Assembly: GCF_028858725.1 (NCBI RefSeq)
Contig: NC_084776.1
Span: 6,510,001 to 6,574,000, forward strand
Length of the DNA stretch: 64,000 nucleotides
Direction of reading: 5' to 3'
DNA from: Colius striatus
Taxonomy: Eukaryota > Chordata > Aves > Coliiformes > Coliidae
Within the stretch, counting starts at the first letter, position 1. The number at the start of each line of letters is the position of its first letter. Below the pieces are notes generated by a model that did no database searches, had not been told where the DNA came from, and worked only from the letters and a program-made list of their open reading frames with translations. This document shows positions 47,801-52,100 of the stretch, piece by piece. A program made the translations under genes and the position numbers.

Positions 47801-48980
47801 AGACATAAATGCTCTCACTTGTTTGTAGTTGTGAATCATGGACAAAAACTCTTCCAGATGAAGCAGAACCAGAACATTTGGTTCTTCTGTCCATTTGTCT
47901 CCTTCTTCTACCTGTCCAGATAGGGAAACAGTCAGACCAACAGTCTAATTCACACAAACCAGTGCTCCCACTCTGACTTCTGAGGCAGGGAGAAAGTTGA
48001 GGGCATTGCTTGGGTTGCTAAATACAATTACTAATGAGGGTCAATAAGAGAGGCAGAAAAGGGCAAGAACACTGAGATTTTGCTCACACACCTGACAAGA
48101 CACAACCTTTCTCCTCCAGCTGATGCTGCAGGGTACAGCCTGACTCTCAACCACACAGGAATAATTTGCAGCCTGCAAAGCACTAAGGATCTGTCCACCA
48201 CCTTCTACCTGTAAGAGAGCTGAAATGAGGGTATGGGTCAGGTCTCCACAGCGAGAGCTGACAGTCAATACAAGGCAGATGCAGGCTGTGAGAACAAGTA
48301 CCTGGATCTAGCACCGCTGTTATGTATTTCTGGCACTCCCCTGGTCGCTGAGCTTTCAGCATTTTGGCAAGAGCCCTCTTTCTCTCTTTTTCCTGCTCCT
48401 GTTCCCTTCTCCGTGCATCTCGTTCCTTCCTCCTCTGACACATAGCCTGGCTGATTGCCTCCTTTTCCTTCCGACTATATTTTCTCTTCTTGGCAGCAGG
48501 TGATGTTTCAGGGCTTGCTTCCCTTACCAGAGGCCTACCATTCCGGCCTGTGTGCTCAGTCTGAGAAGCTGGCAGTGGGCACACGGAGGGCCTCTCAGCA
48601 TCACTTGTGCCATCTGGGCTGCCACAAGACACAGCTCCAGCCGACACGGGGTCTTCCCACGTTCTCTCTCTGCAGGATGCCAGCAGGCTGCCACAATCCA
48701 CATCCCCACCACAAACCGCATCCCTCTTTGCTTCCACCTTCCTTTTGATCCTCTCAGACAACGGAACGACCTCCACCAAGTCCTCATCTTCCTCTTCGCT
48801 TCCACTGCTCACCATCACAACTACCCCCGCCGAATTTCCCGGTTTGGGAGAGGGAGGTGAGGACTGCCGGCAGCCCAACACTCCGGGCGGTGGCTGTAAG
48901 AGGGCCGCTAAGCTGGGCAGCTCCTCCTCACCGCTCTCCTCAGACCCCATCCCGCTCTCCGCCATCCCGCTCTCCGCCAT
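44848..48980 (-). CDS. EME1: EME1, non-catalytic partner of the MUS81 structure-specific endonuclease
   Basis: With MUS81 it cuts 3' flaps, stalled forks and Holliday-type junctions in the nucleus (family knowledge). Coding exons, 5' to 3': 48980-48302, 48219-48092, 47911-47819, 47396-47275, 47030-46904, 46410-46295, 45521-45332 and 45024-44848. All joins are in frame and give 543 residues, against 570 in human. The long first exon encodes an acidic, disordered N-terminus and a charged helix ([12 protein letters not shown] onward). The nuclease-like ERCC4 fold begins at [14 protein letters not shown] and includes [21 protein letters not shown] and [16 protein letters not shown]. The C-terminal helix-hairpin-helix region includes [23 protein letters not shown] and [14 protein letters not shown]. 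The start is uncertain among three in-frame ATGs at 48980, 48965 and 48950. It shares a promoter with MRPL27. Confidence 0.96.
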
Positions 48981-49187
48981 CCCGCCTTTTCTCTCCCCTC
49001 AGGCGCCGGGGTGAGGGGGAAGCTCAAGCGCGCGTCGCGATTGGACGAAACGCGCGCGAGGCGGGCGGCGATTGGTCCGAACGCGCGCGGCCGCGCGCGT
49101 TCGGACCAATCGCCGCCCGCCTCGCGCACCCTCACGCCCGCCCACCGCCCCCCTCTCAGAGGAGGAAGTGACGCTGTGAGGGGAAAC
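48981..49187. promoter_or_regulatory. Bidirectional CpG promoter shared by EME1 and MRPL27
   Basis: Only 207 bp separate the two start codons, which point away from each other. The interval is extremely CpG-rich and TATA-less. NF-Y-type boxes are ATTGG at 49040-49044, ATTGG at 49071-49075 and CCAAT at 49106-49110. An ETS/GABP-like site, GAGGAAGTG, lies at 49162-49170 close to MRPL27, as is common for nuclear genes of mitochondrial ribosomes. The centre is a perfect palindrome, listed separately. Confidence 0.8.
49054..49127. repeat. Perfect 74-bp palindrome with no spacer
   Basis: Two 37-bp arms are exact reverse complements, centred between 49090 and 49091; the core is ACGCGCGCGGCCGCGCGCGT. 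I paired every base out to 49054/49127, and the first mismatch is 49053 against 49128. Each arm carries one NF-Y box (ATTGG in the left arm, CCAAT in the right). An imperfect third copy of part of the arm (GATTGGACGAAACGCGCGCG) lies just left at 49039-49058. Confidence 0.97.
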
Positions 49188-52100
49188 ATGGCGGCGCTGG
49201 GGCGGTTGTGTGAGTGAAGGGGGTGTTATTCCCACCCTCAGATTCACCCTCCTCCGCGGGCTGTGGGGAAGGGGTGTCCCGGGGAGCGTCACTTGTCGGT
49301 AGCTCGAAGCTTTCGCCTCTCCCCCTTCGGCTGTGAGGCGGTGCTGTGGTGAAATGGGCGGGTTGTCAGGCCTTAGCGCTGCCGGATCGCGGTGTCCTTC
49401 AGGCGGGGAAGAGGCCTCGGGGGGGTGGTTTGTGGTGTAACCTGCTGAAACTTGGGTCAGCTCTGAGGTGGGACGGAGCTGCTGAGGGCTCTAAGCTTTC
49501 TGGACTCGAAAATCTCCAGGGATGAGGGCTGCACAAGCTTTGATTGTCCTCATAGTGAAAAAAAACCTCATCTTTGGAACGTCAAAGTTCATTTGCGAGG
49601 GGTGCTGCTCTCAGGGCAGTGCGATAGGCTTTAAAAATCCCTTGTTTTTAGTCTAGGAGTGTTACAGGCAGAAATACGCTCATGGTTTCCTTGGTGGGAC
49701 ATCAGAATTGTGAAGTTTCCCAATATGACTTCAGTCATGTTGCAGATCTCTGCCTCGGGCTTCTCTAGGTAACTGCTTTTTCCCACGTGCCTGGCATTTT
49801 GAGATCCATTTGTTTTATTAGCAAACTTCTTCCATGCAACACAAAATCTGACCCTGGAATCTAACCTCTTGGGAGGGTTGTTTCTTTAATTGGGCTCTAA
49901 CTTTGTAGAATTTGAGTATATGAAACTGTAGCTCTGGTTCATCTTTCCCTGCTTCCCTCTAGTTTGTCAAGCCTCAGAGCTTCTACGTAATGGATAAGCT
50001 CCTGAAATTAATGGTTCTTTATAGAGTAATTACCCTTATTTCCTGATAACATTTCTAGCTCACTGAGTATCCATGGTGGTATAATTAAGATTAAATTAAT
50101 CCAGTGGTTTTACTCAGGGTAAGGAAACAACAAGGCTGTGATAACCACTCCTCCATACTAAACTGCTTCTTAGGAGGCTAAATAGAGGGATTCAGAAAAA
50201 CTTTCATTGCCTACATGAAAGGAAGTACTGAAGAGATTGTTAAGAACTAAATATATCTCAATCATTTTTAACAGAGTTCACAAGAGTGTCAGCTCTCTTG
50301 ATCAGAAAACCAGCCAGTGTCTTTAGTTTGTGGTGTGAATGACATTTTGTGTGCCAGAGGCTTTTATTTTTTTCCTTGATTTGTCCGATTGCAACTCAAG
50401 GATTTGCACAAAATGCTTCAATTGGTGTGTTCAGGACAGTAATTCTAAATTTATGTGTTGTCCTGGAGTCTCCACACTTCTAAGAGTTGTAAATATCCCT
50501 GTGTTAAGTAAGTGTCATTTGATCAAAGGGGAAACTGAAACAGAGAATACACTGTGTCTTCTCTCAAAGTAATATAAGGCCAACCCACAGCAACTGGTGA
50601 CCTCTGTACCTCATTTTACAAGGCCTCACTGAAGCAGGGATTTGTGCATGTCCATTATTATTGGCATTACTCCTCCCTGGGCAGCAGCAGTACTTGAGAC
50701 ATGGCCTCTTTGCAGGGGGCTTAGGCTATGGTTGTCTAATTTGGTTTATCTTGGAAGTACTTTATTTTTTTGACCCCTTATATAAAGGGTGGGTGCCAGG
50801 AGGATGGAGCCAGGCTGTTCTCAGTGATGGCCAATGACAGGACAAGGGGCAGCAGGTACAAGCTGGAACATGAGAGGTTCCAGAGAAACACAAGGAAAAA
50901 CTTCTGCAGGGTGAGGGAGCACGGAAAGTGGCTGCCCAGATGGGCTGGGGAGTCTCCTTCTCTAGAGACATTCAAACCCACCTGGATGGGTTCCTGTGTG
51001 AGCTGCTCTGGCAGGGGGGGTTGGACTGGATGATCTTTCAAGGTCCCTTCCAGCCTTGGAGATTCTGTGGTTCTTTTGCCTTTAGTTTTAAAGCCTGTTT
51101 TAACTGACATCCTTTAACCCTGAAAACAGAACAGCTTTTTTTTCCTCAGCTGACGTTGTTGTTGTTGCTCCCCACGTAGTTCTGAGCACTCCCCCAACAA
51201 GCCTGGTTGCTGTCAGATGTGCTTCTAAGAAAAGTGGAGGCAGCACAAAAAATTTAGGTGGCCGCAGCCCTGGGAAACGCTACGGATTCAAAAAAGTGGA
51301 AGGTGGGTCTGAGGATCTGCTGAGTCTTCTTTGGGTTTCAGTGGGTTCTTCACAGCTTCTCCCCCAGCATGGTTGTGAGTTGTTGAGCGTTTCAGTAGGA
51401 GGTGACCAGGGCCCTCTGCCAAGAGAAAGGGAAGGGGAGGTTCAGTGAAGGCCCGTGATGGAGGGCAGGCTGAGTCAGCCTCCCTCCCAGGTGGGCCCAC
51501 CAGCTGACACTGCCTACAGAAAATGTACTTTGCTCCTGCTGTTGCCTCGCTGGGTACTCTGTGGGACACCTCATCACTCCACTGCACTTTTCCCCCCATG
51601 CTGTGCTGGAAAGCTGGGCATTTGCAGTGTTTACAAAGGGGAGAATTATGAGGCTTAGCAGAAGACAAAGTACAGATTCTTGCAGCTGAGAGTTTAATAA
51701 GTATTGGCTTTGCTGATGGAAACATAGTGATGGAAAAGGTAATAAAACAAATGCCTTTAGCAACCAGAAAATGCCTTTTACCCTAGAAATAATCTCTTTA
51801 AAGACTAGAATTGCTTTTTTCCATCATATTTCAATTGCCCTTTATTTCCTGATAACAGCATGGGGTTTTTTCCATAGAAAATTCCCACAGAAAGATGGGG
51901 TTTGTAAGTCCTGGAACCATTTGTGTTCTGCCATGGCTTTGGGGAGCTGTTTCTCTGCAGCCTGACTCTCTTGTTCTGTTGCAGGTGAATTTGTGCATGC
52001 AGGCAACATTTTGGCCACACAGAGGTTGATACGCTGGCATCCAGGGGCTCATGTAAGTTTTTCCTGTCTCTTCTGTTCCAGTTCCACAGTCAGTGTCTCC

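What the first reader, a model, noticed from the sequence alone, without database searches (positions are those of the whole stretch)
49054..49127. Perfect, spacer-free 74-bp palindrome in the middle of the EME1/MRPL27 bidirectional promoter
Seen directly: 37-bp arms with no mismatch and no loop, centred 98-110 bp from each of the two divergent start codons, with one CCAAT box in each arm. Each gene would therefore see the same promoter half. Perfect palindromes of this length are normally unstable and could extrude a cruciform. EME1 itself belongs to the enzyme that cuts branched DNA, so self-regulation through DNA structure is a tempting but unsupported idea. The plain alternatives are a recent inverted duplication of one promoter half or a fold-back assembly error.
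Basis: partly seen in the sequence, partly recalled or inferred. Interest (0 to 1): 0.75.

Follow-up and report, generated by a model that had tools for sequence, protein, structure and literature searches.

The report
Mirror-image CCAAT promoter, mousebird EME1/MRPL27
Between two bird genes that are read in opposite directions lies a perfect 74-base DNA palindrome; it appears to be an old pair of mirror-image switch sites, also traceable in a parrot, whose two halves became identical in this bird, rather than an assembly error or a new kind of switch.

Summary
Confirmed: 49054-49127 is a perfect, spacer-free palindrome (37-bp arms, 81% GC); the next in the window has 8-bp arms, and 10,000 Markov simulations of 207 bp gave at most 16. 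It lies between the EME1 (-) and MRPL27 (+) start codons of a bird, probably a mousebird. Four of 116 retrieved EME1-like proteins run upstream of the start codon and expose the promoter in translation. A parrot fits all three modules (33 and 31 bp spacings; 0 of 1000 shuffles for either orientation) but with at least two mismatches between arms; pigeon, duck/goose and rhea fit in part, some tests not significant. A fold-back artefact or a recent new inverted duplication is therefore less likely. Best reading: an old CCAAT (probably NF-Y) bidirectional promoter whose inverted modules were homogenised, probably by template switching. NF-Y binding and mechanism are inferred. EME1 self-regulation through a cruciform is unsupported.

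The parts
49054..49127 (.). perfect spacer-free 74-bp palindrome (37-bp arms, 81% GC)
49029..49059 (-). module U1: CCAAT box on the - strand at 49044-49040; direct repeat of U2, period 31 bp
   Evidence: parrot fits the same 31-bp spacing
49060..49090 (-). module U2 (left arm): CCAAT box on the - strand at 49075-49071, facing EME1
49091..49121 (+). module U3 (right arm): CCAAT box on the + strand at 49106-49110, facing MRPL27; exact inverted copy of U2
49082..49099 (.). (CG)n-rich self-complementary core; possible seed for snap-back copying and perhaps Z-DNA-prone (inference)
   Evidence: sequence; simulated 207-bp stretches contain a palindrome with arms of 8 bp or more in 98 of 5000 and 168 of 5000
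48978..48980 (-). EME1 start codon (first of three in-frame ATGs)
49188..49190 (+). MRPL27 start codon
   Evidence: gene identity
49163..49173 (+). AGGAAGTGACG, ETS-like site on the MRPL27 side (motif recalled, not tested); outside the palindrome
   Evidence: sequence

Best explanation
The palindrome is the symmetric part of an old, compact, CCAAT-driven bidirectional CpG-rich promoter. Three CCAAT modules of about 31 bp stand in the order U1, U2 (both facing EME1) and U3 (facing MRPL27). With the NF-Y contact range given in PMC4982600 (7 bp before to 17 bp after the first C), U1 would cover 49027-49051, U2 49058-49082 and U3 49099-49123: no overlap, and the palindrome equals the stretch from the outer edge of the U2 footprint to the outer edge of the U3 footprint plus 4 bp at each end. 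NF-Y on U3 would serve MRPL27; NF-Y on U2, with U1 at 31 bp, would serve EME1. The inverted layout predates this bird; in its lineage the two inner modules became identical, most likely by template switching (one arm copied from the other through a hairpin), turning a quasi-palindrome into a perfect palindrome. Shown: the palindrome, the three boxes, the 31-bp spacing, translated traces of the same layout in a parrot. Inferred: NF-Y occupancy, the direction and mechanism of homogenisation, and that no cruciform is needed for function.
For: Three CCAAT boxes with a U1-U2 direct repeat, 0 of 1000 simulations. Relatives: 4 of 116 retrieved proteins run into the promoter. Back-translated parrot peptide: CCAAT-type module 22 of 23 at two places 31 bp apart (CCAAT-compatible at -85 and -54 from ATG) and ATTGG-type module 21 of 23 (ATTGG-compatible at -118), 0 of 1000 shuffles for each type; mousebird -95, -64, -130. 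Pigeon ATTGG-type module 22 of 23, 0 of 1000; duck/goose CCAAT-type 21 of 23, P 0.006. Conservation sits mainly in the modules: parrot compatible at informative positions 15/18 (U1), 17/19 (U2), 15/18 (U3), but 10/29 between U1 and ATG and 4/10 upstream of U3. Parrot arms carry two forced mismatches, so the pair is imperfect there. Literature (passages only): in c-Fos-bound human promoters direct CCAAT pairs peak at 31 bp; NF-Y contacts span -7 to +17; in TOP2B a CCAAT pair at distance 32, called inverted there, binds NF-Y at both boxes (PMC4982600); an NF-Y-dependent bidirectional promoter in chicken (PMC5663575); template switching turns imperfect into perfect inverted repeats (PMC7954356 and PMC8604942).
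Against: Relatives were seen only as translated peptides, so boxes are 'compatible', not read. The palindrome as such is not significant in the degenerate back-translation (parrot 29 of 31 pairs; 16% of shuffles as good). Only the parrot fits all three modules. The pigeon's CCAAT-type module (P 0.243, best place far upstream) and the duck/goose ATTGG-type module (P 0.127; its box is GTTGG at best) are not significant, rhea's CCAAT-type is weak (P 0.043), and rhea's record starts too near to show U3 (P 1.0). In the pigeon the stretch upstream of U3 also fits (16/24), so conservation is not confined to the modules there. The unnamed records (label lgn) I take to be k-mer contigs (recalled), which may break at a perfect palindrome; perfect arms in relatives could thus be missed and the polarity 'imperfect to perfect' is not proven. 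No binding or expression data.
Confidence: 0.6

Rival explanations
1. Assembly or library fold-back artefact: one arm is real and the other is a spurious inverted copy.
For: GC-rich palindromes are hard to sequence (recalled); no reads could be examined; the search of the window's own assembly did not complete.
Against: The palindrome stops after 37 bp on both sides between two different, intact gene starts, whereas a fold-back read would be expected to run on into the copied flank (inference). A module in the U3 orientation fits the parrot (33 bp from its U2) and the pigeon (0 of 1000 shuffles each); a degenerate, by itself not significant one (P 0.127) lies in duck/goose at the same 35-bp distance.
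Confidence: 0.08
2. Recent de novo inverted duplication of one promoter half in this lineage, unrelated to modules in other birds.
For: Arms are perfect; the U1-U2 repeat runs across the left palindrome boundary without a break, so the left arm looks native and the right boundary like a junction (sequence; the stretch at the boundary is a CG run, so this is weak).
Against: A module in the inverted orientation is found outside the lineage at nearly the same place (parrot -118, pigeon -120, mousebird -130 from ATG).
Confidence: 0.13
3. The perfect symmetry is kept by selection for a DNA structure (cruciform or hairpin) with a role in transcription or as a substrate of MUS81-EME1, giving feedback on EME1.
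For: A single strand of 49020-49160 folds with the arms as stem (35 pairs, 4-nt loop), -66 kcal/mol, z -9.05; yeast Mus81-Mms4 contributes to breakage of palindromes transcribed from near their centre (PMC8053094, passages).
Against: The parrot pair has forced mismatches, so perfection is not conserved there. The centre is all G and C, which should hinder extrusion (recalled). The yeast passages concern gene-sized repeats (one construct given as 1 kb). No link to EME1 dosage found.
Confidence: 0.05
4. Remnant of a mobile element or viral terminal hairpin.
For: Spacer-free GC-rich hairpins occur in some viral ends and fold-back elements (recalled).
Against: No exact 3-14 bp target duplication at the ends; apart from U1 no other place in the window matches a 31-bp arm module at more than 20 of 31 bases; 0 exact matches of a 24-base piece of the arm in viral contigs; the module is also present outside the palindrome as U1.
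Confidence: 0.02

Closest known systems
NF-Y (CCAAT) bidirectional promoters, e.g. chicken CCDC152/GHR-AS-I6 (PMC5663575, passages)
   Same: head-to-head genes, short shared promoter, CCAAT box
   Different: here CpG-rich, with three boxes, two of them in a perfect palindrome; NF-Y binding not tested
Paired CCAAT boxes with 31-bp spacing, and the TOP2B pair (PMC4982600, passages)
   Same: U1-U2 at exactly 31 bp; an inverted pair U2-U3 (35 bp between box starts)
   Different: full 37-bp arm identity, not only the boxes; that paper did not treat inverted pairs separately
Quasi-palindrome correction by template switching (PMC7954356, PMC8604942, passages)
   Same: perfect inverted repeat where at least one relative seems to have an imperfect one
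   Different: longer arms than in the yeast passages read (up to 16 bp) and in a vertebrate promoter; ancestral nucleotide sequence not available here
Perfect inverted repeats surveyed across genomes (PMC13155455, passages)
   Same: perfect, spacer-free
   Different: that survey reports spacer-free repeats in eukaryotes as disproportionately AT-rich; this one is 81% GC

Membership tests
NF-Y-driven bidirectional promoter | two divergent genes with under 1 kb between them | tested here: met
   207 bp between start codons; gene identities
NF-Y-driven bidirectional promoter | CCAAT boxes with typical spacing | tested here: met
   three boxes, 31 bp direct spacing, compare
NF-Y-driven bidirectional promoter | conserved boxes in relatives | tested here: inconclusive
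   parrot fits for all three, pigeon, duck/goose and rhea in part; peptides only
NF-Y-driven bidirectional promoter | NF-Y binds and activates both genes | not testable with these tools
   needs ChIP or reporter assays
Template-switch homogenised quasi-palindrome | perfect arms in the derived sequence | tested here: met
Template-switch homogenised quasi-palindrome | imperfect arms in relatives | tested here: inconclusive
   two forced mismatches in parrot; degenerate test, possible ascertainment bias
Template-switch homogenised quasi-palindrome | cluster of changes on one arm relative to the ancestor | not testable with these tools
   no nucleotide sequence of relatives obtained
Mobile element or viral terminal repeat | target-site duplication | tested here: not met
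   no exact one of 3-14 bp
Fold-back assembly artefact | inverted copy runs on into the flank | tested here: not met
   arms end at 37 bp with unrelated flanks
Fold-back assembly artefact | inverted copy absent from relatives and from reads | tested here: inconclusive
   inverted-orientation module fits parrot and pigeon; no reads available

The most novel reading that the evidence does not exclude
The two halves of a divergent promoter evolve in concert: because they form a palindrome, recurrent hairpin template switching keeps copying one gene's CCAAT module onto the other's, so that two unrelated genes (a DNA-structure nuclease subunit and a mitochondrial ribosomal protein) stay wired to the same promoter half over tens of millions of years.
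Probability: 0.22. Interest if true: 0.62.

Novelty: new variant of a known kind. Interest (0 to 1): 0.45.

Why it matters
If right, it is a readable vertebrate case in which a mutational process (template switching within a palindrome) acts directly on transcription-factor sites and makes the two sides of a bidirectional promoter identical. It gives a small, testable locus for how long perfect GC-rich palindromes persist in germlines, and for whether regulatory halves can evolve in concert.

Tried and rejected
Rejected or disfavoured: chance; mobile-element or viral end (no exact target duplication, no close copy in the window besides U1, 0 exact viral matches); simple fold-back artefact (see rivals).

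Led nowhere: searches for relatives of the EME1 first exon, hoping for promoter DNA, in genome contigs (462 stretches matched a pattern, none confirmed; one scan used) and viral contigs (378 matched, none confirmed); a region search with the parrot promoter peptide returned only itself among 52 candidates; paper search for fold-back assembly artefacts, 0 papers with at least 4 of the 6 terms; paper search for at least two of EME1, MRPL27 and bidirectional promoter, 13 papers, none with a title about this promoter; the only one with all three terms holds them in a gene table and a reference. The degenerate palindrome test on the relatives' peptides has no power (share of 500 shuffles as good: parrot 0.16, pigeon 0.32, duck/goose 0.516, rhea 0.8).

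Full report
OBSERVATION. The interval 49054-49127 is a perfect, spacer-free palindrome of 74 bp, 81% GC. It is by far the longest in the 64-kb window: the only other spacer-free one with arms of 8 bp or more has 8-bp arms. In 5000 order-1 Markov simulations of the 207-bp promoter the longest arm was 13 bp; training on the left half only gave 16 bp in another 5000. As single-stranded DNA, 49020-49160 folds with the arms as stem (35 pairs and a 4-nt loop, -66 kcal/mol, z -9.05, 0 of 200 shuffles as stable). Chance is excluded.

GENES AND HOST. EME1 starts at 48980 on the - strand, MRPL27 at 49188 on the + strand; 207 bp lie between the start codons, 73% GC, CpG observed/expected 1.27. The EME1 C-terminal exon matches solved EME1 chains; a later + strand exon matches mitochondrial bL27m (Pfam Ribosomal_L27 only at E 0.0033, below the curated cut-off). 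The EME1 first exon is 98% identical over 42% of the query to a partial EME1 of Colius striatus, so the window is most likely from a mousebird; this is inference from one protein.

ANATOMY. There are three CCAAT boxes between the start codons, not two: ATTGG at 49040-49044 and 49071-49075, CCAAT at 49106-49110. The first two sit in direct repeats with a period of 31 bp (23 of 32 bases; best 30-bp ungapped match 23, reached in 0 of 1000 simulated pairs). The third is in the exact inverted copy of the second. I call the modules U1, U2, U3; the palindrome is U2 plus U3 and the last six bases of U1 with their copy. Using the NF-Y contact range given in PMC4982600 (position -7 to +17 from the first C; passages read), three complexes would fit without overlap, and the palindrome ends 4 bp outside the U2 and U3 footprints. 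In that paper direct CCAAT pairs in c-Fos-bound promoters peak at 31 bp, the spacing of U1-U2, and a pair at distance 32 in the TOP2B promoter, called inverted (in the same passage also a direct tandem), binds NF-Y at both boxes; inverted pairs were not analysed separately there.

RELATIVES. No bird genome collection was at hand, and the search of the window's own assembly did not complete. A detour worked: three protein searches brought 116 distinct proteins, mostly named or evident bird EME1 (two unnamed ones, P0115 and P0116, may not be birds). By eye on that listing (first 40 residues of most, 130 of those with a late anchor), 4 of the 116 run upstream of the EME1 start codon far enough to translate the promoter: P0009 (parrot-like; EME1 start resembles Amazona collaria P0084), P0002 (pigeon-like; Columba livia P0046), P0020 (duck/goose-like; Anser P0087) and P0099 (Rhea pennata, named). 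The others start at the ATG or inside the gene, or extend by a few residues only (e.g. P0091). I back-translated the four extensions into degenerate DNA and compared them with a 23-bp core of the module in both orientations, with 1000 shuffles of each peptide. All eight tests: parrot CCAAT-type 22/23 (at two places), P 0/1000; parrot ATTGG-type 21/23, 0/1000; pigeon CCAAT-type 19/23, P 0.243, at -353 and so far from the promoter; pigeon ATTGG-type 22/23, 0/1000; duck/goose CCAAT-type 21/23, 0.006; duck/goose ATTGG-type 19/23, 0.127; rhea CCAAT-type 20/23, 0.043; rhea ATTGG-type 16/23, 1.0 (its record begins too near for U3 to appear).

SPACINGS. Positions are from the EME1 ATG. Mousebird: ATTGG -130, CCAAT -95, CCAAT -64 (35 and 31 bp). 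Parrot: -118, -85, -54 (33 and 31). Duck/goose: GTTGG at best at -143 (read by me from the peptide; its first base is forced to G), CCAAT -108 and -66 (35 and 42). Pigeon: ATTGG -120, CCAAT -77 (43). Rhea: CCAAT -119 and -89 (30). Each peptide also has further CCAAT- or ATTGG-compatible places by degeneracy (for example parrot -16 and -13, pigeon -113, -253 and -100, duck/goose ATTGG -73 and -63, rhea -101, -80 and -46), which I did not use because the module around them does not fit. The boxes are compatible with the peptides, not read.

WHERE CONSERVATION SITS. In the parrot, at positions where the peptide constrains the base, the mousebird base is compatible at 15 of 18 (U1 footprint), 17 of 19 (U2), 15 of 18 (U3) and 9 of 12 (core, U1 register), but 10 of 29 between U1 and ATG and 4 of 10 upstream of U3; the median over 100 registers is 0.36. 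In the pigeon the U3 footprint fits at 16 of 18, the sequence upstream of it at 16 of 24, and U2 at 12 of 20. In duck/goose U3 fits at 14 of 19, U2 at 13 of 19, U1 at 11 of 18; in rhea U2 at 15 of 19 and U1 at 13 of 19. So the modules are what is mainly conserved, clearly in the parrot and less clearly elsewhere.

PERFECTION. The parrot arms contain at least two forced mismatches, at pairs 5 and 8 from the centre. Palindromy as such is not testable on such degenerate sequence: 16% of shuffled parrot peptides allow as many pairs. The unnamed records are, as I take their label (recalled), k-mer contigs, which may break at a perfect palindrome, so relatives with perfect arms could be missing from this sample. 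With those limits, the simplest history is an old inverted module pair that became identical in the mousebird lineage. Template switching between imperfect inverted repeats does this: PMC7954356 (great apes) and PMC8604942 (yeast), passages read. The (CG)n core is itself self-complementary and would be a natural seed (inference). A weak mark of direction: the U1-U2 repeat runs through the left palindrome boundary without a break, so the left arm looks native there (inference; the stretch is a CG run).

STRUCTURE AND EME1. In yeast, Mus81-Mms4 (Mms4 is the counterpart of EME1) contributes to breakage of palindromes transcribed from near their centre of symmetry (PMC8053094, passages; the abstract says divergently, one section heading says convergently transcribed). 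The arrangement here is similar in kind, but those are gene-sized repeats (one construct is given as 1 kb), and nothing links cutting to EME1 expression. The GC-only centre should slow cruciform extrusion (recalled). I leave this as a low-probability rival.

VERDICT. Observation confirmed and extended by a third module. Most likely an ordinary kind of promoter, CCAAT-driven and bidirectional, with an unusual mutational history. I saw no paper on this promoter or palindrome in the listings of my seven paper searches in the held library; that is no proof of absence in print.

Noticed in passing
48947-48985: A 15-bp unit is repeated 2.6 times without mismatch at the EME1 start, giving [15 protein letters not shown] with three in-frame ATGs; the ten other EME1 rows in the alignment show no such repeat at the start.
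   Followed up: partly
49011-49017 and 49129-49135: A 7-bp inverted match GTGAGGG / CCCTCAC flanks the three-module block outside the palindrome; may be chance, not tested.
   Followed up: no
49163-49195: The MRPL27 side carries an ETS-like AGGAAGTGACG (49163-49173) and an AAACATGGCGGC start context (49184-49195) resembling a YY1 site (motifs recalled); both lie outside the palindrome, so the two genes do not share all promoter elements.
   Followed up: no
P0006 (Colius striatus EME1): The Colius striatus EME1 protein found is partial and lacks the start of the first exon next to this palindrome; a sequencing gap at a GC-rich palindrome could explain it, but this was not checked.
   Followed up: no
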